From Heterobasidion occidentale (Eukaryota; Basidiomycota; Agaricomycetes; Russulales; Bondarzewiaceae): a stretch of 64,000 nt of DNA. Of the stretch, positions 1 to 47,073 are shown piece by piece. Position numbers and translations under genes: made by a program. Location: the NCBI GenBank assembly GCA_039111635.1, contig JBCAQO010000012.1, forward strand, positions 186,001 through 250,000, given 5' to 3'. How positions within the stretch are numbered: the first letter of the stretch is position 1; each line of letters opens with the position of its first letter. The notes under the pieces were generated by a model, which did not search any database, had not been told where the DNA came from, and was given only the letters and a program-made list of their open reading frames with translations.

Positions 1-3310
<3,310 letters not shown>

Positions 3311-9994: not shown

Positions 9995-11229
9995 ATGAGT
10001 ACCGCCAAGACCCCGGAACCGGAACCCCCGGACAAAGTCTTTCAGCTGCCCGGCGTACCAGACCGACTACTACAAGTCACCCAGGGAAACAGAAATTGGG
10101 TCCAGTATATGCAGATGTTCGGGGCGATCGCCCTCCTAGCCAGAGCGGACGATCGACTCAAGAAGAAACACTACCTGAGAGGACTCAAGAAAGAACTCGC
10201 CGTGCGAGTCCTTCAGGACGGAGTACCAGATCGTTTTGAAGATCTAATAACTCAAACAGGGAAGCACGCGGAGTCAATGGAAGAAGAAGCTTTTCAAGAA
10301 GCCTACAGACCAATCCTATCGCCATACCAAGGAAGGAAAAGGAAGCGCGAAGGTACTGACAACGACATTTGTTTTAGTTGCAGTGAACCGGGACACTGGG
10401 CAAGGGACTGCCCAAACCAAAGGAACAAGAAGCCGAAGAAGACCCTATGGGAAAGGATGCAAGGGACCCCAGAGCGGAACCGATACCAGGAAAAGAAGCT
10501 CACGGAAGCTTCGGAGATCCAGCGTCTCTTGGAACAGATCCCGGATAGACGCCAGCCAACGCCTATTCCGACAAGCAATCGGTTCTCGCCGATCGCACAC
10601 TTGTGCGAAGAAGTCGAAGTCAGAGAAGATCCCGAACCAGCCATCTCGATCTCTTTGATCTCCCAGATTGTAAAAACGGGTGCACCATCACTTCGAATCG
10701 AAGTAGACCTCATAGAAGCCAACAGGACGGCAAGGACCTCCGCATTAATTGATAGCGGAGCAACCGGCAATTTTATTAATCGCCGGTTTGTAGAAGAACA
10801 TCGAGTTGCGACTATCCCCACTCGACCCATCCCCATAACCCATGTGGGAGGAGAACAATTAGGAAAGCCCATTACTGCACGGCAAATCTAGGTGTCCGCA
10901 TTCACGGAGAAAATCACGGGACACATCAGGAACGGACCTCATTATTTGTCTCGGACATAGGAAAAGAGGACGTTATTTTAGGAACCGACTGGTTGTTGAA
11001 GCACAACCCAGAAGTCGACTGGCATGCCTACGGGCTGCACCTCACGAGATGCCCACCCTCCTGTCTAATACAAGGAGGGCCGGTCAAGGCCAAAAGAGCC
11101 TTCAAGAAGAAAACAATATTCCCCACTCTCGAGGAGAACAGGATAGAGGCCGAGAGCTATCAGCACCGGGACTACAGTGTCCCATCACAGAAGGCGGGAA
11201 TACCTAGGAAAGGCCGGAAAGTGGGAAAC
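9995..11229 (+). pseudogene. Element C gag and protease, truncated
   Basis: From the ATG at 9995 the frame encodes a Ty3/gypsy Gag: a capsid-like helical region, a CCHC zinc knuckle (CFSCSEPGHWARDC, near 10370-10411) and then the retroviral-type aspartic protease active site (DSGATGNFIN, near 10750-10780). The frame stops at 10889-10891. One base shift later it continues as protease C-terminal sequence (IGKEDVILGTDWLL, HNPEVDWHAYG), closely matching the protease of element A. It ends abruptly at 11229, where LTR1 of element A begins; no reverse transcriptase follows. The gag is only distantly like that of A while the protease tail is very similar, so C is a separate subfamily. Confidence 0.8.
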
Positions 11230-12062
11230 TGTTAGGTCGGAGACCTATCACGTGCACCGATGCACGAAGGGGTCCCTAGGCTAAACCTCCACTGGTTCGT
11301 ATAGTCGTAGACTCCAATGGATGAAGACGATGGATCGTCTTTGGGCTCTTTCGAGGAACTCGGGGTCGCTGTCGGCTTTGTTCTCGAAGAGATTGAGAAG
11401 GTGATCTTCGAGGTCTTCTCGATGATGAGGGAACCGGATGATCTTCTCCTGTCCAACAGATGACACGAGGGGGTGTCCAACTGAGAACGCGGAAGGCAGC
11501 TAACCCGGTGTAGAAGCGGATAAGTAGAGGGAGGGGAGGGAAGGGAGACGAGTCCAGTGCTTCGTCAGACCGTGCAAAGAGTTTCTCAGATCTGACAGAG
11601 ATCACGAAGCGTGGGCTAGGAAGGTAGCCAGACGCCGGGTGCAGTGCAGAGATCGAGTGTATTACAGGTGAACGAGCTGAGCTTCTTAGAAGCTCATCTC
11701 GGCTATTTACGTACAGAAGTGTCTAGGGCAGGATCCAGATCTGGTCCGTGCGCTTCTCAGGTACCGAAGTCAACGATCGAGATCCGTAAGCTAGAATGCC
11801 TCATCGACCTGCCATGTAACCAAATATAGTAATCCGAATCACTAATGTCCATCCACATCTTCGATCGATCAAGAACCAGGAACGGGGGTCAGGAACCAAT
11901 GTCTGTCCACATCAAGAATCAGGAACAAGAGATCAGTGTTCATGCGTTAGCATGTAAATGGTAAGGAGTCATGAAAAGCGGTCCGAGTCTGTAACAAGTC
12001 CGAAGCACTTGACCAGCCCATCCATTCACGTGCGAAGCACGTGTTAGGACGCGGTCCTAACA
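11230..12062 (-). mobile_element. LTR1, 3' LTR of element A
   Basis: 833 bases with TGTTAGG...CCTAACA termini. On the minus strand it opens with a palindrome (arms TGTTAGGAC and GTCCTAACA around a 3-base centre, 12042-12062), followed by two CACGTG palindromes. The sequence complementary to the primer-binding site is at 11669-11678. It is bordered on the inside by the polypurine tract at 12063-12076. Confidence 0.93.
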
Positions 12063-12076
12063 CTACCCCCTCTCTA
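12063..12076 (-). promoter_or_regulatory. Polypurine tract of element A
   Basis: On the minus strand AGAGAGGGGGTAG directly precedes the 3' LTR. An identical tract precedes LTR3 of element B at 24020-24033. It is the expected plus-strand primer site for reverse transcription. Confidence 0.8.
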
Positions 12077-13748
12077 TACAAGTCTTCGGCGCTTGGCGGG
12101 TGCACCGATGGTAGGAGCGGGTCTCCTCAGGTGAACTTCGTCGAAGGTGGGGATGTTCCGAGCGGGGTATCCAGTCCAGTTCGCGGTGTCGATCAAGTGA
12201 TCCAACGCCTGCTTGTGGTATCCGTATTCTTCAGCCGTCCTATCCATCTGCAGACGAAGGCGCCGGGACTGCATGCGATGCCTATCGTAGTCTTGAAGAA
12301 AGCCGCGCGCCGTAACGTCCGTTCTCTGGCGAATGCCCGTGATTGGACATCCCACGACGAGATGGCCGGCGCGTCCACATTCCCAGCAGGTACGAGTAGC
12401 GGGGTCGGTGGGTGGAGAAGGCGGGAGAGCAGGAGGGTTAGGCCAAACGTTTTCTGAGTCCATGGCGTCGGCAGGCCATCCCTCTTCAGTTGCGACAGGA
12501 ATGTCCGGCGACTGGGGGGAGGTTTCGTTGACAATGATAGGATGGGTGAGGTCGTCGCCGAGTAAGGGGGGGGATGGGGACACAGCAGGGGGTGATGGGG
12601 GTGGTACCGGTAACGGCTGAAGTACCTGGCGATCCCGGACGACTTGTTCGGGGTCGTAAGGGGGACTGGTGGGCCGCATGGATTCCGTGGTTTCTTCCGT
12701 CGGCGGGTCGAAAGAGTCGGGCAACCGGGAGGACTGGTTCCGTGATTGCCGGAGGATCGACAACCATGGGTTCTTCGACGTCGACCTGGTGAAAACCGTG
12801 TTCTTGGATATCCGGCTTGGTCATAACCCAGGGCCTGACGTTATCTTCCGGGACACTTCCGCTTGACCAGTAGCTTGCGACGGGGTGAACTCCGCGACTG
12901 TTCAGGGGGAAGGAGTGAGTCGGCAAGAGTCCCTTAGGAACGTACTCCTCTATCTCTAGACGCGCCCCATTAAGTCCTGTAAAATAGAACCAACGGATTG
13001 TGTTCTCCTTGTACCTGATCCGAGCCAGAGTTTCGAGCCAAGCCACGACGGTGTGCGTCTGGAGGAGGACGGAACTGCTGCCGAAGATGCCTCCTAGCCG
13101 GAAGTTAATCATGTCGTTGCGGATGGCGGGGAGATTGATCAGCCCTTTCATGCGGTAGGAGGTGACGGTGATGTTGGCGAGGAGGATAGCTTGGGTTTGA
13201 TTGAGCGGTCCAGAGAATACTTGATAACATTGGGCCCAAACCGCTTGCTGTAAATAAAACAGGAAGGCACGAGGGTTCTTCAAGCCGGGCTGGTTTAGAA
13301 TGATGGGGGCCTCGTCCTCAGCGAGCGTGAGGTGGTAGACACTGTTATCGGTCCTCAGGTCTTGGTAGAGGCGGAGGTCGTGAAGGGGGTTGGGTAGGGC
13401 GCGGATGCGGATACGAGGGTTTTCGTTGTGCACGGCGAAAGCCAACGATGGGACGACGATGTGGGGGTTCGGCATTTCAGCCGGGAAACGGGGAATGACG
13501 AATTCGGTGAGGGGGTCGGCGACATGGACGCCTTCCGAGGGGATGTAATCCTCGCTGTCGTAGTCCGAGTCCGTGTCGTCAACGAGCGTGGGGGTGGTAG
13601 TGGGAGGGGTGACGGTGCGGAGGATGAAGGGGTTGGGGGACGGGGTGTTGGAAGCGTGAGGGGAGGTGGTAGCGGAAGTCATTCTGATGTTACTAAGAAT
13701 ATAGCGGGGGGAGTGAGCTAAGAAGAGGTGCGCAGGGGCAAGTGACAT
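12074..13748 (-). pseudogene. ORF3 of element A: post-pol zinc-knuckle protein
   Basis: This extra ORF lies between pol and the 3' LTR. It starts at the ATG at 13748, or possibly at the in-frame ATG near 13680. It encodes about 550 residues: a Ser/Thr/Pro-rich acidic N-terminus, a folded-looking central region (VIPRFPAEMPNPHIVVPSLA, FLFYLQQAVW, RIRYKENTIRWFYFTGLNGA), a Pro-rich linker and a CCHC zinc knuckle (CWECGRAGHLVVGC) followed by an Arg-rich tail ending KRRRLV. One frame break lies near 12705. Element B carries the same ORF with breaks at other places, so an intact ancestral frame is implied. It is not a known env protein: no signal peptide or fusion-protein features are visible. Nucleic-acid binding is likely from the knuckle; the role is unknown. 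Confidence 0.8.
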
Positions 13749-13800
13749 TCAATGGTAGCTGGGATGCTGAGGAACGTCTTTGTCCGATGTAGGGTGTCTT

Positions 13801-13965
13801 TTATACGACGGAGGAGATGCCAATGGTGGCGGCGGCGTGAAGGGATCCGAGGACAAGGGCGATAGCGATGGAGACAGCGGTGAGAGCAAGAGTCGCGACG
13901 ATGGTATAAACGGCTACTGTGGACAGAGTGGGGTCGAAAGGGGTCATAGCCGTTTGCCTGGCCAT
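13801..13965 (-). CDS. Small single-pass membrane ORF of element A
   Basis: A 54-residue ORF starts at ATG 13965 (MARQTAMTPFDPTL) and ends at 13801. It overlaps the last 22 bases of pol in another frame. After a short polar N-terminus it is a long hydrophobic run (TVAVYTIVATLALTAVSIAI and on to the C-terminus), long enough for one or two membrane spans. Element B has the same ORF (22136-22300) with the frame kept and only conservative changes. Conservation at the protein level in two copies supports coding. Function unknown; a viroporin-like or membrane-anchor role would be a guess. Confidence 0.6.
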   Translation of the reverse strand: MARQTAMTPFDPTLSTVAVYTIVATLALTAVSIAIALVLGSLHAAATIGISSVV

Positions 13966-16900
13966 GCCAATCCTCGGTTGGTCTGCTTTTGTAGCTCCTG
14001 GTATGCTTGAGCCCGCCAATTAGAGTTGTCCGATCGTTTCTGCTGCAGCTTTGATCGAGACGAATCTATATTGGGCTTCTTTGGCTGCGCTTCTCGATCG
14101 TTGATCGCCGGTGGTGGCACTTTTGATCGAGGAACCAGGGGCGGCCTCTTTAGCTGCGTCATTCGTTTGTTGATCTCTTCCACGATCTGGGGGATAGCTA
14201 ATCCTGTAGCGAGAAGCTTCTTTCCGATCGGATGCTTCTCGAGCTTCTTTCTGATTTGATCTTCTTCGGCTACTCTGTTGAGTTCTAATTCGATCACCAG
14301 GGCCAGAATGGAGGCTTCCATTCCTTTGACTGCCCGAGGGTGCCGGCGGTAGAAGTCCTTTATGGCTTCTTGTGCGTTAGTGACGTTTGCCGCGGCTTCC
14401 CAAGAGTTGTCCGATTCCGGGTAGCCCTTCCATTTGATCAGGTACTGCAGGATCTTCCATCGTCCGAAGCGCCTAGCTCCGACGATGGCTTCGACTTCGA
14501 ATTCTTCTTGCCCTTCGATCAGGTCCGGAGCTGGTTTAGGGTAGTTCGGGCCATAGACTTCGTTTTCCTTGTAGGGCGTGAGTCGACTAGCATGGAAGAC
14601 GTCGTGAATGCGCTTCCAGCTGTTGGGCAGCTTCAGCCTGAAGTTGACATTTCCTATGGTGTCAGTGATTTCAAATGGCCCAAAGCGTTTGGGTCTCAGT
14701 TTCTCTGATGGGTGATCGGTGTGGATGTTCTTCCCATCGAGCCATACTTGATCTCCTTTCTTGAAAGGCGGCAGGTCCGTTCCAAAACGGTCGTGCTGTA
14801 TCCTCATGGCTTCGGCTGCAATTTCGAGGCTGGCTTGTGCTTCCTTCCTAGCACGTTGCAGAGCTTCGAGGCGAGCGTTGGCGGTGGGGACATTCGTGTT
14901 TCCGATGATGGCTGGGTAAGCCCGTGGTTGATATCCATGGAGAAGTTCAAATGGTGACTTCTGCGTGGCTGAGTGCTGATGGGTGTTGTGGGCATATTCC
15001 GCGTAGGGGATTAATCCAGCCCAATCGTCTTGTGAAGAGCTGCAAAATGCTCTTAGGTATTGTTCTAATTCCTGATTCATTCGTTCAGTAGCACCGTCCG
15101 TCTGCGGGTGATAGGCTGTGCTTAAAGCAGATTTGATTCCCAATTCTTTGAGCAGGGCTTGCGCTACTTTTGAAGCGAATTGAGTTCCTCTATCCGATAT
15201 GATTTTATCTGGCAGCCCATAGCGTCTCCAGGTGTTTTCTAACAAGATTTTGGCTGTTCCATCAGAGTCGGTAGTCTTCAGGCATGGGGTTATTACTGCC
15301 GTTTTGGTGAATCGATCGGTTACTACATGTAGCGAGTCGTATCCATTTGATTCTGGTAGATCTGTAATAAAATCCATGGTTATTGTTCCGAAGGGTCGAT
15401 CTGGGATTTCCGTTGGTTGTAGGGGTACCATGGTAGGATGTGTGTCGTTCTTGGTGGATTGACAGATGGCGCATCCTTCCACATATTGGTGAACTGTGTT
15501 TGATATTCCTGGCCAAGTAAATTCCTGTCCGACTAAGGCTAGAGTTCCTCTTTGTCCTGGATGTCCTGCTGCTAGATTGTCATGGTTTAATTTGATGATA
15601 TCTTGGCGAAGTTGTTCGTTCCGGGGGACATATATTTTTCCTCGGTGAAGGACCAATCCTTCTTCTTCGTTCCATTCTTGTAAACCTTTCTTCATGTTTC
15701 GAGGTCCTAAGGTTTTAATCTTGGCTAGGGTTTCTACTAGCCATTCGTCTTTCCTATTTTCTTCAATGATTCGTTTCCGAAGGTCGTCGTCTATTATGGT
15801 AATGCCTCCTCGTCCAGTTGCCCTAATGTGAAGTATTTGATGAGGGTCCCAACTGTTGTCTGTATTAATGGCATTGATTTCTGCGAAAGGTCTTTGGATC
15901 TTTTCTGTGTTCTTGAAAAGTTTGGGCTCCAGGAGTGTTTCGCCTGAATTGTCAAATTCCACCCCCTTTTTATGGTCTGGGCGCCGTGACAGACCGTCGG
16001 ATTTATTAGTGACTCCTGCCTTGTGCGTCAACTTGTAGTCGAAACGCGAGAGGTAGAGTGACCATCGTGCTTGTCGACGGTTTAGTTTCTGGCTTGAACG
16101 GAACCATTCTAGGTTCTTGTGGTCCGTCCAGACGTCTACCGGGTGGTCGGCGCCCTCCAAATAGTGTCGCCAAGCTTCAAAAGCTCGAACAACTGCTAGC
16201 AACTCTTTATCATAGATTGGGTAGTTGCGTTCTGTAGGTGAGAGTGACTTGGAAATATAAGCACATGGGTGCCATTTTCCATCTTCGCCAACTTGCGATA
16301 AAACTGCTCCGGTGGCGAAGTCGGAGGCGTCGCATTCAATGCGAAACGGATTCCTTGTGTCTGGCATAACGAGCACCGGAGATTCTGTAAATATTCGTTT
16401 TAGCGTTTGAAACGCTTCTTCGCATGCTGGTGTCCAATCCCAGGTGCGTTCTTTCTGTGTTAACTCAAATAGCGGTCGTGCTATCTTCGAGTAATCTTTG
16501 ATAAACCTGCGATAAAAGTTGCAAAAACCTAAAAACGATTGCACTTCTTTGACTTTTCCAGGGTCGGCCAGTCCATAATGCCGGCTACTTTAATCGGGTC
16601 CATTTCCAGATGTCCGTGTGATATAACATATCCGAGATAGTCGATTTTCTTTTTGTGGAAGTGGCACTTCGAGGGTTGTAGGTACAGGTCGTTGTCTTGT
16701 AGTATCTGTAAAACCTTTCGAACCGTCTTGATGTGATCGTCCATTGTTTTAGAGAATACTAAGATGTCGTCCATATAGATTGCCACTAATCCGGCGTAGA
16801 TGAGGTCTTTGAAGAGGGCGTTCATCATAGTTTGGAATGTTGCCGGTGAGTTGGTTAATCCAAAGAACATCACCAGAGGTTCGTACATCCCTAGATTGGT

Positions 16901-18459
16901 GACGAACGCGGCCAGTTTCTCGCTTCCTTCTTTCATGCGTACGTTGTTATATCCTGTATCAACATCCATTAGTGAAAAGTACACGGCTTCGGCTAGAAGG
17001 TCCAGTAATTCTTGAATAATCGGCAAAGGGTATTTGTTCTTGATCGTTATTTCATTGAGTTTGCGATAGTCCATTACTGGTCGTAGTTTCCCATTCTTTT
17101 TCTTGATGAAGAAGAATGGGGATGCCATGTGCGATTTGGATTCTCTGATGAATCCTTTCTGGAGGTTTTCATCTATGAATTTCTTGAGTTCCACTTGCTC
17201 TCCAGGGCTAAGACTGTATAGCTTGGGTTTGAGCGAGTGATCCATTCCTTCTTTGATCTCTATTTTGTGATCCCAAGGTCGAGAGAGCGGTAACTGTCCC
17301 TTTGGTCGACCTTCAAAAACCTTCCTGTAATTCCAGTATTCCTTCGGTACTATTTCTTCGAAGGATAGTTCGGGTTTTCCTTTGGCGGCTTCTTCTGCAA
17401 GTCTTTGCGAGTTGGTGTGCTTTGTTTGTTTCCCTGTCGGTGCTTTGGCAGGTTTGCTTCCTTGAGCCGGTGTGTTGGCATGTGGAAGTTCCGTGGTTTC
17501 GGCGCGATGTATATCGACGCCTTCTTCGGAGTCGTTGTACAATTCCAGTGCCTGTAATGTTCCCGTATCTAGGCATCTAACGAGGTAGACTCCATCTTCT
17601 TCAAGATCCTTGGAGGGAAGTGCCGGAAGTCCGTCACCGTCCTCCGGAACGTCTTCTTCAGCCCATGTCGGAACCTTATAATTTCTGGTTCGGGCCTTCA
17701 GACGTTCAGCATTCAACCTTCGAGTTGTGAACTCCGGACTTGTAGGTATTGTCCGCGGATGTGGTACTGTGGTGTTTCCCACTTTCCGACCTGGTACTGC
17801 TTTTCCCGGCTTTTGCACTGCTATTGAGTAGTCGCCCGTTTGCGGTACTGTTTCCATGCGCCGTATGCTTGGTTTAGGACGTCCTGGTTTTCTTGTAGCT
17901 CTTTTAGCTTTTACCGGTCCTCCTTTTATTTGGCAGGAGGGCGGGCATCTGGTAAAGTGTAGCCCGTAGGCATGCCAGTCGACTTCTGGGTTATGTTCCA
18001 ATAACCAGTCGGTTCCTAAAATGACGTCCTCTTTTCCTATTTCCGCGATATAGAATCTTGCTGATTCTGTATGCGACCCCCCTTTTTCACCTAGAACCTG
18101 TAATTTGAGGTTGGCGAATCGTGTAATGGGTCCTCCCTTGAACTCGGTGTTCTGGACCGTACTAACTGGGATAGGGGTGGGGGTTTTGTGTGTAGTGATT
18201 CGATGTGCTTCTACGAAGCGAGGGTGCATGAAGATTCCAGTGGCTCCACTGTCCACTAGTGCCTGTGTAGCAGCTTTTCTATTCTTGCCTATGAGCATTG
18301 TCTCGAGTCGGAGGGATGGTGCACCATGTGATTTCATTTCCGAAAGATACAATACATCTGGATGTCCATGCTCTTGGTCAGCATCTTTACTGGCCAGAGG
18401 AGCGTACCGATTTCCCGCAAGAATCCTACTCTCCACATCCGCTGCCGATGGGAGAGGCC
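13944..18459 (-). CDS. pol: Pol polyprotein of element A (one frame break)
   Basis: The order along the protein is aspartic protease (VDSGATGIF, near 18240), reverse transcriptase (RPVMDYRKLNEITIKNKYPL; catalytic YMDDILVFS near 16760-16790), RNase H (CDASDFATGAVLSQ; DHKNLEWF), integrase with the HHCC zinc site (HPGQRGT...CAICQ) and D,D,E core (MDFITDLP; SDRGTQFAS; GATERMNQE), a GPF module (KLRPKRFGPFEI) and a chromodomain (WKILQYLIKWKGYPESDNSW). The chromodomain places it among chromoviruses. Pol is in the -1 frame relative to gag and overlaps the gag stop, so frameshifted translation is likely. A single missing base near 16560, just after the reverse transcriptase (MDWPT), splits the frame in two; otherwise it is open. 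It ends at 13944. Confidence 0.92.
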
Positions 18460-19773
18460 TTAAAAATTCTTCGAGTCGCTAAAGGCTCGAACTTCCTCGA
18501 TTTCTTCCATGCTGAGTCCCATCATCATCTGGCAGATGTGGTTGACTCTGTTTTTTCCTTCTTCGACGTCTTCATCGTCGAATTGTCCTTCGTCCATTTC
18601 TGCTTCGCGCACTGGTCTGCGACGAGGGGGTTGGAATCTTCTCTTGGGTCGAGAAGGACAGTTGCGCGCCATGTGCCCGGGTTTCTTGCAAAAGAAGCAC
18701 TTGCCTTCTTTGGCAAGTCGATCTCTCTCCGCCGGGGTAAGCTTCTTGAAGCGAGTTCGGACAGCATCGGCCTCCATTTCCGCTGCGTCTACGTCCATAG
18801 GTTCGTATTGGGGCTCCCTATCGTGCCGTGGGGGTGCCCTCTCGTCGTAAAAGGTACGCGGAGTGTAGATTTGGAATTTTCCTTTTCGGAGGTCGTATGC
18901 TCGGTCCCTTGCGATGCGCATCCTTTCGTGTTTCTTGGCCTTCTCGACTAGTTCTTCCCATGTCCCGTCTGCAGAGGGATCTTCATAAATTCCTTTTGCC
19001 AACTCCCACTTGAGTCCTCGCAGGAAATGGGTTTTCTTGGTTTCTCCGTCTACACCAGCAAGTGCTGCGAGCTGTTCAAACAGCTGAAGGTAGGTGTTAA
19101 ATGATTCTTTTCCTTGATTGACTCGGGCCAGTTTGTCGCGAGCATCGGCTTCTTTGTTGAACTCCTCGAAGTTGGTGGCTATCTTTTTGCGGACGGATGT
19201 GAAGCCGACCGTATCTGCCCAAGTATATCTGTTCCAATCCTTCAGCGTGTTCCTGGCCTGAGTAAAGTTTCTTGCCCATATCCCTGCCGAGCCTTCCTTC
19301 ATATACGATAGAGCGTAAGCGATTTTGGCGAATTCGTTCGCATAATCCTTCTTCCTAGCCAGGAACATTAAATCGATTTCGTGGAGGAATTGCTCGGTTC
19401 GTTTTCTGTTTCCATTGAAGGTGGTGGGTTTGGCCATAGCTGGTCCCTTGGACTCATTACCTCCAGTATCTGCCGACATTGTATCGGGCGGGGGCTCTGG
19501 ATCGTCAGGTGGTTCTGGATTTCCACTTGGTGCTTCAAAATACTCCGGTTCGGGGACAAACTCCGGTGTTGGGGCTCGGAAGTCTTCTTGGGGAGTGGTT
19601 TCTTGTAAGGGGGATGCAGCGGGCGTGTTTCTTCTAGAGATTCGACTTCCACTGGCTGTTTCTCTGGGTAGAGTATGGGTATGTGCGGTCTTTGGCGAGT
19701 CACTATTGCCTATTTGTCGGTGATTCAGGCTTGTCGAAGGTCTTTCTCGCGATGTAGTCCTCGATCTTAACAA
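18460..19773 (-). CDS. gag: Gag polyprotein of element A
   Basis: An intact 437-residue Gag. The N-terminus is Ser/Thr/Pro-rich and probably disordered. The central part (about residues 110-290) is the retrotransposon Gag capsid domain, with KPTTFNGNRKRTEQFLHEID and LAALAGVDGETKKTHFLRGL. A CCHC zinc knuckle (CFFCKKPGHMARNC) follows near residue 370, then a basic stretch and an acidic tail. The start at 19773 may not be the true one; an in-frame MSADTGGNES lies about 100 residues further on, corresponding to MSTAKTPEPE of element C. Pol follows in the -1 frame. Confidence 0.9.
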   Translation of the reverse strand: MLRSRTTSRERPSTSLNHRQIGNSDSPKTAHTHTLPRETASGSRISRRNTPAASPLQETTPQEDFRAPTPEFVPEPEYFEAPSGNPEPPDDPEPPPDTMSADTGGNESKGPAMAKPTTFNGNRKRTEQFLHEIDLMFLARKKDYANEFAKIAYALSYMKEGSAGIWARNFTQARNTLKDWNRYTWADTVGFTSVRKKIATNFEEFNKEADARDKLARVNQGKESFNTYLQLFEQLAALAGVDGETKKTHFLRGLKWELAKGIYEDPSADGTWEELVEKAKKHERMRIARDRAYDLRKGKFQIYTPRTFYDERAPPRHDREPQYEPMDVDAAEMEADAVRTRFKKLTPAERDRLAKEGKCFFCKKPGHMARNCPSRPKRRFQPPRRRPVREAEMDEGQFDDEDVEEGKNRVNHICQMMMGLSMEEIEEVRAFSDSKNF

Positions 19774-20794
19774 GGTGTAGGTCGTGTGGCGTGCGGGGAC
19801 GGTCTCTCCCCCAAGCAGCGTATCGTATTCGCTCTTTCCTTGTCTTTGAAGAATCCGGTGAGGAATCCCGCGTAGTAGAAGTGTTCTTTCTTTCGTCGTA
19901 ATAAAGTTGATCCTTGTCGACGTCTTCGGGTAAATCTCCGTAGACTTCTGCTGGGTCTGTTCTTAGCCGGGAGGATATCCCGCTGCGACTTCGTCCGTTG
20001 TTCTTTATTCTTTGAAGAAGAAGGGTACTGCCTGTCTTCTTCCTGCCTGTAGTGCTTCCTGTAAGTCTGGGTCCCTTTGAATAATTTCGTTGATGGAATA
20101 TCAATTTGGTCGATGAGCTGGATGATCTCGGAGAATGTGTGTCCTGAGATGAGGGTCCGGAGATGATAAGTTTTGTGGGCGAACTCTCCTCTTCTGACAA
20201 TGAAACGATCCTTCAATTCTGTTCGGACTGGTGGGGAGTTAGGAGCTTCCAGTGTGTTTTCCTATGTTGAGGAGAAGGTCCAGTGGATGAGGATTGAGAC
20301 GTGGTCTCTGTTCTCCTTGGTCTTGACGAGTTTCCACTCTGATTCCGTCTGTGTCGATATCCTTGCGATGGTTCTTCTGAGATCGGGATAACGGCGACGG
20401 GGAAATCGTCTGGTCTTCCATCGTGTATCTCGACGCAGTTCCTTGCTCTGATGACGTCGGCCTCTCCGTTATCTGTGAGGGTGAACGGTGTCTTTGGTTC
20501 GTTGACGAAGCAAATCCGGGAAAATCTATATCCAGTTTTAAGGATGTCTATAAATATTTCGGGTGCTTGTTGTAGCCTAAGTGTGGCTATTCCTGAGTAA
20601 ACCTTTCCTGGGTTCCGGTGTCTTGCGACTTCTATAGCTCCGGGTAGTTTATTCTTCTTGAGGAGTCGCGCTACTGGGGTGGCCGTTAGGTTTACCCTGT
20701 TGGCGATTGCTAGAATGTTGTTGACGGATGAGAGAAAGAGCTGTCGCTGCTGGGGATCCAGCTTGAATAGAGTAGGGATAATGAGCTCGTTCAA
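19703..20794 (-). other. Pre-gag open region (ORF0) of element A
   Basis: Between the primer-binding site and gag, about 1.1 kb is open in two consecutive frames. The first (20213-20794, 193 codons) begins right in the primer-binding site with no ATG in frame, reading NELIIPTLFKLDPQQRQLFL. The second (19703-20200, 165 codons) is Ser-rich, then acidic and basic (DPAEVYGDLPEDVDKDQLYY) and ends inside the gag start. Together they could form one ORF of about 350 residues if a single frame break is allowed. A third overlapping frame (19767-20216) starts with ATG. Which is used is unclear, and so is the function. Confidence 0.4.
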
Positions 20795-20795
20795 G
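20783..20795 (-). promoter_or_regulatory. Primer-binding site of element A
   Basis: On the minus strand CTTGAACGAGCTC follows the 5' LTR. Its internal TGAACGAGCT is perfectly complementary to AGCTCGTTCA in the LTR, found on the minus strand at 21234-21243 and on the plus strand of LTR3 at 24417-24426. That LTR sequence lies about 30 bases downstream of a TATA-like GTAAATAG, so it would be at the 5' end of the RNA. This is the arrangement of Tf1-type self-priming. Confidence 0.65.
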
Positions 20796-21628
20796 TGTTA
20801 GGTCGGAGACCTATCACGTGCACCGATGCACGAAGGGGTCCCTAGGCTAAACCTCCACTGGTTCGTATAGTCGTAGACTCCAATGGATGAAGACGATGGA
20901 TCCGTCTTTGGGCTCTTTCGAGGAACTCGGGGTCGCTGTCCGGCTTTGTTCTCGAAGAGATTGAGAAGGTGATCTTCGAGGTCTTCTCGATGATGAGGAG
21001 GAACCGGATGATCTTCTCCTGTCCAACAGATGACACGAGGGGTGTCCAACTGAGACGCGGAAGCAGCTAACCCGGTGTAGAAGCGGATAAGTAGAGGGGG
21101 GGAGGGAAGGGAGACGAGTCCAGTGCTTCGTCAGACCGTGCAAAGAGTTCTCAGATCTGACAGAGATCACGAAGCGTGGGCTAGGAAGGTAGCCAGACGC
21201 CGGGTGCAGTGCAGAGATCGAGTGTATTACAGGTGAACGAGCTGAGCTTCCTTAGAAGCTCATCTCGGCTATTTACGTACAGAAGTGTCTAGGTCAGGAT
21301 CCAGATCTGGTCCGTGCGCTTCTCAGGTACCGAAGTCAACGATCGAGATCCGTAAGCTAGAATGCCTCATCGACCTGCCATGTAACCAAATATAGTAATC
21401 CGAATCACTAATGTCCATCCACATCTTCGATCGATCAAGAACCAGGAACGGGGGTCAGGAACCAATGTCTGTCCACATCAAGAATCAGGAACAAGAGATC
21501 AGCGTTCATGCGTTAGCATGTAAATGGTAAGGAGTCATGAAAAGCGGTCCGAGTCTGTAACAAGTCCGAAGCACTTGACCAGCCCATCCATTCACGTGCG
21601 AAGCACGTGTTAGGACGCGGTCCTAACA
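20796..21628 (-). mobile_element. LTR2, 5' LTR of element A
   Basis: 833 bases with the same termini and palindromes as LTR1. A TATA-like sequence (GTAAATAG on the minus strand) lies near 21268-21275, and the putative RNA start with the self-priming sequence at 21234-21243. Its outer edge abuts element B at 21629 with no intervening host sequence. Confidence 0.93.
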
Positions 21629-21630
21629 CT

Positions 21631-22157
21631 AGGCGCTTCGGACGATGGAAGATCCTGCAGTACCTGATCAAATGGAAGGGCTACCCGGAATCGGACAACT
21701 CTTGGGAAGCCGCGGCAAACGTCACTAACGCACAAGAAGCCATAAAGGACTTCTACCGCCGGCACCCTCGGGCGGTCAAAGGAATGGAAGCCTCCATCCT
21801 GGCCCTGGTGATCGAATTAGAACTCAACAGAGTAGCCAAAGAAGATCAAATCAGAAAGAAGCTCGAGAAGCATCCGATCGGAAAGAAGCTTCTCGCTACA
21901 GGATTAGCTATCCCCCAGATCATGGAAGAGATCAACAAACGGATGACGCAGCTAAAGAGGCCGCCCTGGTTCCTCGATCAAATGTGCCACCACCGGCGAT
22001 CAACGATCGAGAAGCGCAGCCAAAGAAGCACTTAGATTCGTCTCGATCAAAGCTGCAGCAGAAGCGATCGGACAACTCTAATTGGCGGACTCAAGCATAC
22101 CAGGAGCTACAAAAGCAGACCAACCGAGGATTGGCATGGCCAGGCAAACGACTATGA
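21631..22157 (+). pseudogene. Element B pol, chromodomain and C-terminal fragment
   Basis: The fragment encodes the chromodomain (LIKWKGYPESDNSWEAAANV) and the following helical tail found in pol of element A. A one-base deletion near 21965 shifts the frame compared with A; allowing for it, the homologous stop is at 22155-22157. It lacks every upstream pol domain. Confidence 0.75.
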
Positions 22158-22300
22158 CCCCTTTCGACCCCACTCTATCCACAGTAGCCGTTTATACCGT
22201 CGTCGCGACTCTTGCTCTCACCGCTGTCTCCATCGCCATCGCCCTTGTTCTCGGATCTGTTCACGCTGCTGCCACCATTGGCATCTCCTCCGCCGTATAA
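22136..22300 (+). CDS. Small single-pass membrane ORF of element B
   Basis: A 54-residue ORF from ATG 22136, the counterpart of 13801-13965. It reads MARQTTMTPFDPTL followed by a long hydrophobic segment (VATLALTAVSIAIALVLGSV). It overlaps the end of pol as in A. The few differences from A are conservative (I to V, A to T, L to V), and the frame and length are the same. Confidence 0.6.
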   Translation: MARQTTMTPFDPTLSTVAVYTVVATLALTAVSIAIALVLGSVHAAATIGISSAV

Positions 22301-22353
22301 AAGACACCCTGCATCGGACAGAGACATTTCTCAGCATCCCAGCTACAACTTAA

Positions 22354-24022
22354 ATGTCCCTTGCCCCCCACAACTCTTCTTACACAACTCCCCCGCTATA
22401 TTCTTAGCAACATCAGAATGTCTTCCGCTACCGCTTCCCCTCACGCCTCCAACACCTCCTCCCCCACCCCTTCCTCTGCGCACCATCTCCCCGCCTACTA
22501 CCACACCCACGCTCATTGACGACACAGACTCGGGTTACGACAGCAAGGATGACATCCCCTCGGAAGGCGTCCCGGTCGCGGATCCTCTTACAGAGTTTGT
22601 TATTCCCCGTTTCCCGGCCGAAATGCCAAACCCCCACATTGCCGTTCCTCCATTGGCTTTCGCCATTCACAACGAAAACCCTCGCCTCCGAATCCGCGCC
22701 ATACCCAACCCCCTTCACGATATCCGTCTCTACCAGGACCTGAAGACGAATAATAGCGTTTACCACCTCACACTCGCCGAGGACGAAGCCCCTATCATTC
22801 TGAACCAGCCTGGCTTGAGGAACCCCCGTGCTTTCCTTTTCTATTTACAGCAAGCAGTCTGGCGCAAGCCTATCAGGTTTTCTCTGGACCACTCAACCAG
22901 ACCCAAGCCATCCTCCTCGCCAACCTCACAGTCACCTCCTACCGCATGAAAGGATTGATCAATCTCCCCGCCATCCGCAACGACATGGTAAATTTCCGAC
23001 TGGGAGAGATCTTTACCACTAGTTCCATCCTCCTACAGGCGCACGCCATACCCGCCTGGCTCGACATACTGGCTCGGATCCGCTACAAGGAAAACACGAT
23101 CCGCTGGTTCCGATTCGCAGGACATAATGGAGCACGTCTGGAGATTGAAGAATACGTCCCTAAAGGGCTACTGCCGACCCACTCCTTCCCACTTAACAGT
23201 CGAGGGGTCCACCCCATTGCGTGCTACTGGCCTGGCGGATGTACCCCGGAGGATAACGTTAGGCCCTGGGTCATGACCAAACCGGATATACAGGAACAGG
23301 GGTTTCACCAGGTTGACGCTGAAGAACCCATGGCTGTCGATCCCCCGGTCGACACCGAACCCGAGCTCCTAGCGGCAGAACCGTTTCGGCCCACCGATGA
23401 GGAGACCGCCGAATTCATGCGGCCCACCAGTCCCCCCTACGACCCCGAACAAGTCGTCCGGGATCGCCAGGTACTTCAGCCGCTACCAGTACCACCCCCG
23501 TCACCCCCTGCTGTGTCCCCATCCCCCCCCTTACTCGGCGACGACCTCACCCATCCTGTCATTGTCGACGAAGCCTCCCCCCAGTCGCCGGACATTCCTG
23601 TCGCAACTGAAGAAGGATGGCCTGCCGACGCCAGGGACTCCGAGAACGTTTGGCCTAACCCTCCTACTCTCCCGCCTTCTCCACCCACCGACCCCTCCAC
23701 TCGTACCTGCTGGGAATGCGGACGCGCCGGCCATCTCGTCGTGGGATGTCCAATCACGGGCATTCGCCAAAGAACGGACGTTACGGCGCGCGGCTTTCTT
23801 CAAGATTACGATAGGCATCGCATGCAGTCCCGGCGCCTTCGTCTACAGATGGATAGGACGGCTGAGGAATACGGGTACCACAAGCAGGCATTAGACCATT
23901 TAATCGACACCGCTAACTGGACCGGATATCCCGCTCGAAACATCCCCACCTTCGACGAAATCCACCTGAGGAGACCTGCCCCCACCATCGGTGCACCCGC
24001 CAAACGCCGAAGACTTGTATAG
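22354..24022 (+). pseudogene. ORF3 of element B, frame-broken
   Basis: This is the same post-pol ORF as in element A. ATG at 22354 corresponds to A's first ATG but soon hits a stop; ATG 22418 corresponds to the second in-frame ATG of A. Frame breaks lie near 22470 and 22862, places that are intact in A. From 22946 the frame is open to the stop at 24020-24022 and includes RIRYKENTIRWFRFAG, a Pro-rich linker, the zinc knuckle CWECGRAGHLVVGC and the terminal KRRRLV. Comparison of A and B is the main evidence that this is a real protein. Confidence 0.75.
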
Positions 24023-24033
24023 AGAGGGGGTAG
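24020..24033 (+). promoter_or_regulatory. Polypurine tract of element B
   Basis: AGAGAGGGGGTAG directly upstream of LTR3, identical to the tract of element A. Confidence 0.8.
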
Positions 24034-24867
24034 TGTTAGGACCGCGTCCTAACACGTGCTTCGCATGTGAGTGGATGGGCTGGTCAAGTGCTTCGGACTT
24101 GTTGCAGACTTGGACCGCTTTCCATGACTCCTTACCATTTACATGCTAACGCATGAACGCTGACTTCTGGTTCCTGATTCTTGATGTGGACAGACATTGG
24201 TTCCTGACCCCCGTTCCTGGTTCTTGATCAACCGAAGATGTGGATGGACATTAGTGATCGGATTACTATATTTGGATACATGGCAGGTCGATGAGGCATT
24301 CTAGCTTACGGATCTCGATCGTTGACTTCGGTACCTGAGAAGCGCACGGACCAGATCTGGATCCTGCCCTAGACACTTCTGTACGTAAATAGCCGAGATG
24401 AGCTTCTAAGAAGCTCAGCTCGTTCACCTGTAATACACTCGATCTCTGCACTGCACCCGGCGTCTGGCTACCTTCCTAGCCCACGCTTCGTGATCTCTGT
24501 CAGATCTGAGAAACTCTTTGCACGGTCTGACGAAGCACTGGACTCGTCTCCCTTCCCTCCCCTCCCTCTACTCATCCGCTTCTATACCGGGCTAGCTGCC
24601 TACCGCGTTCTCAGTTGGACACCCCCTCGTGTCATCTGCTGGACAGGAGAAGATCATCCGGTTCCTCCTCATCATCGAGAAGACCTCGAAGATCACCTTC
24701 TCAATCTCTTCGAGAACAAAGCCGACAGCGACCCCGAGTTCCTCGAAAGAGCCCAAAGACGATCTATCGTCTTCATCCATTGGAGTCTACGACTATACGA
24801 ACCAGTGGAGGTTTAGCCTAGGGACCCCTTCGTGCATCGGTGCACGTGATAGGTCTCCGACCTAACA
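24034..24867 (+). mobile_element. LTR3, 3' LTR of element B
   Basis: 834 bases, in the opposite orientation to LTR1 and LTR2, starting TGTTAGGACC and ending GACCTAACA. The 21-base start palindrome is at 24034-24054. A TATA-like GTACGTAAATAG is at 24381-24392 and the self-priming sequence AGCTCGTTCA at 24417-24426. Compared with LTR1/2 it has clear substitutions, so B is an older or distinct insertion. Confidence 0.93.
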
Positions 24868-26190
24868 GGGGTCTAAAAAGGGACATTGGAGGTAGCATCA
24901 TAATCAGGGTAAGGGGTATTGGCCTTGAAGCTGCCACTCTCTCAGATCCGTCTCCTTACACTGTGCCGTGCGATGGCCAACTACGCGTCGAAGATGGGTG
25001 CAGTGCTCCCATGGGTCTTCCACTGCAGGAAGCTGGCCTGGAGAAAGGGGTGCAGATGTATCGAGGAGCCAGGTACGGCAGAGATGGTGGAAAAGGGAAA
25101 AGGGGAAGGGAAGTGATGCCCATATTGAGGGTATGGATAAAAGAATGTCACGACCAGAGTAGGTGGAGATCCAGAATTCTGTCCAATGCAATTCAACTGC
25201 CCTGACACCACAGACCACACCACAGAGGTACTGGAAGCGCCGAGGGTCAATTACTGCGATGCGGGAGCCTATGCAAATGAGTTTGACAGGACGACAAGAG
25301 ACATGCCAGGAGGAAAGATAGTTGGGAGATTGCGCAATAGCATGGGGGTATGCATGGACGGGTATGAACGTGACGATTGGTGGAAGAGGAGCGGCTAGGA
25401 TAGGAGAGGGAGAGTTCTGTCCTGAAGGTGAAGGTGAAGCCTCATCTGGAGACGGTGAGGGCATCATGCTCATATGAAGCTGAGATTTATGGGACGAGCA
25501 AAGGTGGGCTTTTATGCATGGATGGAAGATGAGGGCAGATCATATGTGTCATATGGGCGGAGACGGCATGTCATAAGGATTAAGCGGCGCAGTCGATAGG
25601 CAAATATGTGGAACCATAGAATGGCATTACATGATGGCATAATTGGAAATGAGCACTTAGAGCATAAGGGATAAGGGAGGGTGGGCCAAGGAGAGAGTTG
25701 TGTTGGAAAGTATGCTGCAACGGCAGCAGATAGGATGACTGGAAGGAATAGAGTGTCTAAGTGAGGAGACTACGAGCTCATGTCGTCCGTAGACCTCATT
25801 CTAGGGTCAGGTCATACTTTCCTTCTCTTAGAAACCAAAATGTGCCGTTCGACGCCGGAAAAGCCCTCGGAGCTCGGCGCTGACGCGCCGGTTTTACGCC
25901 GGATCCAGGTACTAACATCCCAGGTGGTTTTCAGGGGTCCTCGCCCACCCCGATCGTGTTCGTGTCGGCCAGGATCGACGCGCAGATGTCGTCTTGTCCG
26001 TGAACCGCTCGGAGACGCTCATTATTCAGTGCCCTTGTACCCGCTGGACGATGACAACCGCGTAGCCGCGTCCTGGTCGCTCCTCTTCTGAACTCATTGG
26101 TCCGCAGATATCCACCGACAGCGTCCGTGTGGTACACATCCTATCCTACACAATCTCTCTACCCTCACACCTCTCTTCTCGCTCTACACC
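24868..26190. other. Spacer between the retroelement nest and the DUF6534 array
   Basis: 1.3 kb without a recognisable gene. A 189-codon minus-strand frame (24904-25473) exists but is rich in Pro/Ser and shows no domain. The part after 25500 is purine-rich, with several CATATG/TCATATG words. From about 26140 the pyrimidine-rich CTCTCTACCCTCACACC stretch is probably the promoter and 5' leader of the first DUF6534 gene. The missing 5' half of element D is not recognisable here. Confidence 0.4.

Positions 26191-42870: not shown

Positions 42871-47073
<4,203 letters not shown>

What the first reader, a model, noticed from the sequence alone, without database searches (positions are those of the whole stretch)
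12074..13965. Chromovirus with two extra post-pol ORFs: membrane peptide and zinc-knuckle ORF3
Between pol and the 3' LTR, element A carries a 54-residue hydrophobic ORF overlapping pol and a ~550-residue ORF3 ending in a CCHC knuckle and an Arg-rich tail. Sister element B has both in the same order, with conservative changes and frame breaks at different places, implying selection on both proteins. Fungal chromoviruses usually end with pol; a membrane ORF plus a second nucleic-acid-binding protein in the env position is unusual and may be an undescribed accessory module.
Basis: partly seen in the sequence, partly recalled or inferred. Interest (0 to 1): 0.75.

Follow-up and report, generated by a model that had tools for sequence, protein, structure and literature searches.

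The report
Retrotransposon accessory genes, one dimorphic
A common fungal retrotransposon carries two extra genes that selection keeps working, a tiny membrane peptide and a zinc-knuckle protein, and most of the second gene exists in two old, swappable versions inside otherwise similar elements.

Summary
Element A (minus strand) is a chromodomain Ty3/Gypsy element. After pol it has a 54-residue one-helix membrane ORF (13801-13965) and ORF3 (12074-13748; one frame break in A, 557 codons in uninterrupted copies) ending in a CX2CX4HX4C knuckle and a KRRRLV tail. Capped searches found at least 150 membrane-ORF and 104 ORF3 places in this genome.

In 30 copies homologous throughout, median pairwise dN/dS is 0.155 (membrane ORF), 0.133 and 0.220 (two ORF3 parts) and 0.121 (pol part). 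Shifted frames give 1.24-2.17 (40 copies). Both genes are under purifying selection. ORF3 relatives occur in five Heterobasidion irregulare proteins; membrane-ORF relatives in four unnamed ENA-source proteins.

New: ORF3 codons 1-347 come in two deep versions (16 and 22 of 38 copies) with 69 near-fixed differences, against 0 in the pol part, membrane ORF and LTR.

Function is inferred: a Gag-like nucleic-acid-binding accessory protein plus a membrane peptide, probably made from separate RNA. Both structure predictions failed. dN/dS stays below 1, so selection for difference is not shown. My searches found no description of this module.

The parts
11230..12062 (-). 3' LTR of element A (TG...CA); BLAST limits 11227-12065
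   Evidence: 98.5% identical to the 5' LTR; ends read
12063..12075 (-). polypurine tract against the 3' LTR, touching the ORF3 stop
   Evidence: sequence
12074..13748 (-). ORF3, broken in A near 12698; frames 12486-13748 and 12074-12763
   Evidence: dN/dS
12077..12094 (-). basic C-terminus KRRRLV, largely kept in the Heterobasidion relatives
12347..12388 (-). CX2CX4HX4C zinc knuckle of ORF3
   Evidence: sequence; Pfam zf-CCHC E 0.076, below its cut-off; profile matches nucleocapsid knuckles, best E 0.0017
12707..13752 (-). dimorphic cassette: ORF3 codons 1-347 and 5 nt before the start
   Evidence: 69 near-fixed differences in ORF3-N plus 1 in the spacer between types; 0 in pol part, membrane ORF, LTR
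13799..13805 (-). TATAAAA over the membrane-ORF stop, before ORF3; candidate ORF3 promoter
   Evidence: only TATAWAW on the coding strand of A; 14-nt string with it in 37 of 40 copies
13801..13965 (-). membrane ORF, 54 aa; predicted helix about 13846-13902
13998..14025 (-). splice-acceptor-like element (CTAAT ... CAG) in the end of pol
   Evidence: both motifs in 40 of 40 copies; 18-codon window here has pS 0, lowest of 160 windows in 30 copies
13944..16544 (-). pol: RNase H, integrase, SH3-like, chromodomain
   Evidence: Pfam
16529..18436 (-). pol: protease and reverse transcriptase
   Evidence: Pfam
18460..19773 (-). gag with Retrotrans_gag and zinc knuckle
   Evidence: Pfam; 96 places in the genome
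20796..21628 (-). 5' LTR of element A; BLAST limits 20793-21631
22136..22300 (+). membrane ORF of element B
22353..24022 (+). ORF3 of element B, type II, frame-broken (start approximate)

Best explanation
Shown: the membrane ORF and ORF3 are two genuine genes of a multi-copy chromodomain Ty3/Gypsy family, under purifying selection about as strong as on pol, and ORF3 codons 1-347 are an exchangeable cassette in two deep versions within a homogeneous backbone. Inferred: both are translated independently of pol, from separate RNA (spliced, or started at an internal promoter). ORF3 is a Gag-like accessory protein: its N-terminal domain makes protein contacts, the knuckle and basic tail bind element RNA or cDNA and help it into the nucleus, and the membrane peptide places assembly at a membrane. 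Template switching between co-packaged RNAs moves the ORF3 cassette between backbones. Two versions persist either because like restricts like, as with canonical Ty1 and Ty1' gag in yeast, or because a second version entered and has not been lost.
For: Copies and relatives. Selection; variants shared by two or more copies have N/S per site 0.11 (membrane ORF), 0.15 and 0.18 (ORF3) and 0.14 (pol), lower than singletons (0.41, 0.33, 0.86, 0.30). Cassette: pS 0.323 in ORF3 1-350 against 0.096 in pol and 0.105 in the membrane ORF; two groups; near-fixed differences confined to it; region trees conflict; two-peaked ORF3 identity over 104 places against one-peaked gag over 96. Separate translation: ORF3 start lies 217-221 nt from the membrane-ORF start in different copies, so no fixed frame with pol. 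Signals. Knuckle. Ty1 parallel: PMC7055915, passages.
Against: No function is tested. ORF3 shows no relation to this element's gag beyond the knuckle (hhalign probability 3.2 and 1.1%) and no Retrotrans_gag match. Structure models are unusable (pLDDT 34 and 39). The knuckle is degenerate in Heterobasidion P0001 and absent from gene model P0010. Only 10 of 40 copies have an ORF3 of 500 or more uninterrupted codons. dN/dS in ORF3-N is below 1, so selection for difference is not shown. The one GTRNGT donor in the first 2.9 kb of A is inside the LTR and its motif is in the 3' LTR region of 28 of 40 copies.
Confidence: 0.45

Rival explanations
1. ORF3 is a nuclear regulator or suppressor of host silencing, not a particle protein; the membrane peptide acts on its own, for example as a small pore-forming peptide.
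For: Knuckle, basic tail and NLS-like end. A small membrane protein next to a zinc-knuckle nucleic-acid-binding protein also occurs in some plant RNA viruses (recalled, no call). Two ORF3 versions would fit an arms race.
Against: No direct evidence; no family match.
Confidence: 0.22
2. Env-like module: membrane peptide and ORF3 together let the element pass between cells or nuclei.
For: Position after pol and a conserved acceptor-like element at the end of pol, as for env messages.
Against: ORF3 has no membrane segment (best 19-residue window 1.13) and no envelope match in Pfam; the membrane peptide is only 54 residues.
Confidence: 0.1
3. About the two versions only: no balancing selection; a sister family's ORF3 entered by transfer or hybridisation and recombination spread it.
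For: High dS with low dN/dS needs only age and exchange. Each region has its own tree. Ty1 gag has such a history in yeast (PMC7055915, passages).
Against: Near-equal numbers of the two types (16 and 22 of 38) and the limits at the ORF3 start and codon 347 need a further reason, though chance is not excluded.
Confidence: 0.5
4. Captured host gene or passenger reading frames without function.
For: ORF3 has no Pfam match apart from the weak knuckle.
Against: dN/dS far below 1, more than 100 places, relatives in five proteins of another genus. An unsampled host gene as distant source is not strictly excluded.
Confidence: 0.05

Closest known systems
Fungal chromodomain Ty3/Gypsy elements (25-species survey, PMC2864245; passages and the whole of section 5 read)
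   Same: gag, protease, RT, RNase H, integrase, chromodomain; a figure legend lists an additional ORF of unknown function in some elements
   Different: The survey says most full-length elements have one or two ORFs; the part read gives no sequence or test of the additional ORF, and figures and supplements were not open to me
Heterobasidion irregulare hypothetical proteins (P0001, P0008-P0011)
   Same: ORF3 relatives; three of five share the MSL start and the KRRRLV end, several are named CCHC-type in the database
   Different: 35% identity by BLASTP (P0001), 42-48% in alignments; longer linker in most; whether they lie in elements with the membrane ORF was not tested
Canonical Ty1 and Ty1' of yeast (PMC7055915, passages)
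   Same: Two divergent versions of one coding region, with recombinants between them
   Different: There it is gag of a Ty1/Copia-type element (recalled class) and mobility was tested; here it is an extra ORF after pol and no mobility is known
Env-like and other additional ORFs of plant LTR elements (PMC7264820, abstract and passages)
   Same: Sense ORF between pol and the 3' LTR
   Different: Different proteins; ORF3 has no membrane segment; the hydrophobic part is a separate 54-residue ORF

Membership tests
Chromovirus (chromodomain Ty3/Gypsy) | protease, RT, RNase H, integrase in Ty3/Gypsy order | tested here: met
   Pfam
Chromovirus (chromodomain Ty3/Gypsy) | chromodomain at the integrase C-terminal side | tested here: met
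   PF00385 E 5e-14, over cut-off
Chromovirus (chromodomain Ty3/Gypsy) | paired LTRs with TG...CA ends | tested here: met
Chromovirus (chromodomain Ty3/Gypsy) | target-site duplication at copy A | tested here: not met
   flanks GAAAC and CTAGG differ; fits a rearranged copy, other copies not checked
Chromovirus (chromodomain Ty3/Gypsy) | RT placed in a named fungal clade | not tested
   no reference RT set used
Gag or nucleocapsid (for ORF3) | CX2CX4HX4C knuckle | tested here: met
   sequence; Pfam score below cut-off
Gag or nucleocapsid (for ORF3) | Retrotrans_gag or other capsid family match | tested here: not met
Gag or nucleocapsid (for ORF3) | capsid fold | tested here: inconclusive
   pLDDT 34 and 39
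Env-like ORF | membrane segment in the long ORF after pol | tested here: not met
   best window 1.13 in ORF3-N, 0.76 in ORF3-C
Env-like ORF | spliced separate message | not testable with these tools
   conserved acceptor-like element only; no RNA data
Ty1-type self-restriction | two divergent versions with recombinants | tested here: met
Ty1-type self-restriction | version-specific inhibition of mobility | not testable with these tools
   needs mobility data

The most novel reading that the evidence does not exclude
A retrotransposon accessory gene under negative frequency-dependent selection: ORF3 works as a self-recognition or restriction-escape gene kept in two old, exchangeable versions at near-equal numbers, within a module (membrane peptide plus knuckle protein) not described before.
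Probability: 0.22. Interest if true: 0.85.

Novelty: new variant of a known kind. Interest (0 to 1): 0.6.

Why it matters
Extra ORFs of LTR elements are mostly of unknown use. Here two are shown to be under selection in dozens of copies, and one contains a sharply bounded two-version cassette in a uniform backbone. If the Ty1-like reading holds, the family offers a natural test of whether retrotransposons recognise or limit their own kind through a gene outside gag.

Tried and rejected
Two structure predictions of ORF3 pieces (348 and 241 residues) gave mean pLDDT 34 and 39, so no fold search was run. ORF3-N against solved structures: no match at E 1. Neutral passenger ORFs: rejected by dN/dS. 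The frame break shared by A and a copy on contig C8 looked like movement of a broken element, but the two agree at 99.2% over 5.87 kb and the alignment runs past A's LTR end, as in a segmental duplication. Recurrent ORF pairs (130+466, 199+358 codons) looked like a programmed frameshift, but the breaks are one- or two-base gaps at different positions. First averages included copies with non-homologous flanks; the repeat used 30 of 40 copies (dropped L008, L012, L016, L023, L024, L025, L026, L035, L037, L038). Type counts used 38 of 40 (L023, L025 dropped). For near-fixed differences L037 and L038 were also dropped in pol, and in total five of 40 copies in ORF3-C and eight of 40 in the LTR were left out.

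Full report
What is there. The window lies in a 45-Mb assembly of 159 contigs. Element A lies on the minus strand between LTRs 98.5% identical. It has gag with a knuckle, a protease-RT frame and an RNase H-integrase-chromodomain frame, then a 54-residue ORF (13801-13965) and ORF3 (12074-13748), which ends against the polypurine tract. Element B is a 3' fragment on the plus strand, 21629-24868, with the same two ORFs.

Both are genes. ORF3 was found at 104 places in the genome (403 candidates, 104 scored, 109 matches) and the membrane ORF at 150 (165 candidates, 150 scored); both are lower bounds. One of the 150 has a stop inside. I fetched 40 of these 150, a choice that favours copies close to A in the membrane ORF; 38 have homologous ORF3. 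Only 10 of 40 have an ORF3 of 500 or more uninterrupted codons from its start. Frame breaks relative to one copy are about as dense in pol: of 30 copies, 13 have none in 1490 nt of pol, 8 none in 1050 nt of ORF3-N and 16 none in 575 nt of ORF3-C. Many are single-base gaps and some may be assembly errors (inference).

Selection. In 30 copies homologous over the whole stretch (435 pairs), median pairwise dN/dS is 0.121 for the pol part, 0.155 for the membrane ORF, 0.133 for ORF3 codons 1-350 and 0.220 for codons 365-557. In all 40 copies (780 pairs) it is 0.129 and 0.182 for the two ORFs, and 1.24 to 2.17 in shifted frames, one of these from only 113 usable pairs. Variants seen in two or more copies have a lower N/S than singletons in all four regions, as expected from selection on active lineages and neutral decay of single insertions.

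Relatives. Two ORF3 searches of 5.8 billion proteins found five Heterobasidion irregulare proteins and three fragments from other sources; only about 8000 candidates were scored each time. One search with the membrane ORF found four ENA-source proteins at 80-89% identity. ORF3 has no Pfam match over cut-off. A profile search of solved structures matches retroviral nucleocapsid knuckles only at the knuckle, best E 0.0017. There is no likeness to this element's gag beyond the knuckle.

Two versions of ORF3. pS is 0.096 in pol, 0.105 in the membrane ORF, 0.323 in ORF3 1-350 and 0.131 in ORF3 365-557; the LTR differs by 4%. In the 178 of 435 pairs with close pol end and LTR, ORF3-N still differs by about 11% at the median, up to 23%. 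ORF3-N distances split 38 copies into 16 and 22 at a 12% cut; lower cuts give 6 or 12 groups. Between the two, 69 sites in ORF3-N are near-fixed (13 fully fixed), with 1 in the spacer, 1 in ORF3-C and 0 in the pol part, membrane ORF and LTR; apart from the ORF3-C site they run from 5 nt before the ORF3 start to codon 347. The groups were defined on ORF3-N itself, so the telling part is the absence elsewhere. Trees of pol, ORF3-N, ORF3-C and LTR reject one another, except an AU value of 0.056 for pol data on the ORF3-C tree; AU used 2000 replicates, fewer than the program advises. Over the genome, ORF3 identity to A has two peaks (49 of 104 places at 73-79%, 22 at 85-88%); gag has one (42 of 96 at 94% or more, tailing down to 77%). 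These identities cover unequal spans and include A's out-of-frame tail. B matches the type I copies at 83% and the rest at 92% on average (L023 and L025 were not taken out there).

Expression. The ORF3 ATG lies 217-221 nt from the membrane-ORF ATG in different copies, so ORF3 does not depend on a fixed frame with pol. An 18-codon window ending just before the membrane ORF has no synonymous change in 30 copies, the lowest of 160 windows; CTAAT and CAG motifs there are in 40 of 40 copies, and a TATAAAA string over the membrane-ORF stop is in 37 of 40. A splice donor is less clear: one GTRNGT in the first 2.9 kb, within the LTR, its motif found downstream of ORF3 in 28 of 40 copies. These are leads, not proof.

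Literature. PMC2864245: found passages and the whole of section 5. PMC7264820 and PMC7055915: found passages. Other papers: listings and starts of abstracts only. The searches listed no paper whose title or abstract start describes this module; they cover open PMC text only, and supplements and figures were not open to me.

Judgement. The genes and the cassette are shown. What the proteins do is inferred from motif, position and analogy. A Gag-like accessory role is my first choice, with regulator and env-like roles open. Whether selection keeps the two versions is undecided: dN/dS in ORF3-N is well below 1, and age with recombination could suffice.

Noticed in passing
window 20213-20794 (-): An open frame right after the 5' LTR, before gag, without an ATG in A. 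150 places match it in the genome (346 candidates, 150 scored). In 11 copies (55 pairs) median dN/dS over its first 134 codons is 0.29, against 0.59 and 0.97 in shifted frames. Two divergent copies have ATG where others have a threonine codon. It may be a further gene or a gag extension with an unusual start.
   Followed up: partly
window 11222-11230 and 21628-21634: Element A has no target-site duplication (GAAAC and CTAGG) and abuts fragment B, so the locus is rearranged.
   Followed up: partly
L004 (contig C8, 2825579-2831441) and element A: The two are 99.2% identical over 5.87 kb, past A's LTR end, and share the ORF3 frame break: probably a duplicated segment.
   Followed up: partly
window 1-3275 and 43011-46293: A nearly identical direct repeat of about 3.3 kb, beginning at the window edge.
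   Followed up: no
window 26295-52347: Six diverged copies (61-86% to a reference copy) of a gene-like stretch in tandem order, coding-looking and rich in hydrophobic residues by eye.
   Followed up: no
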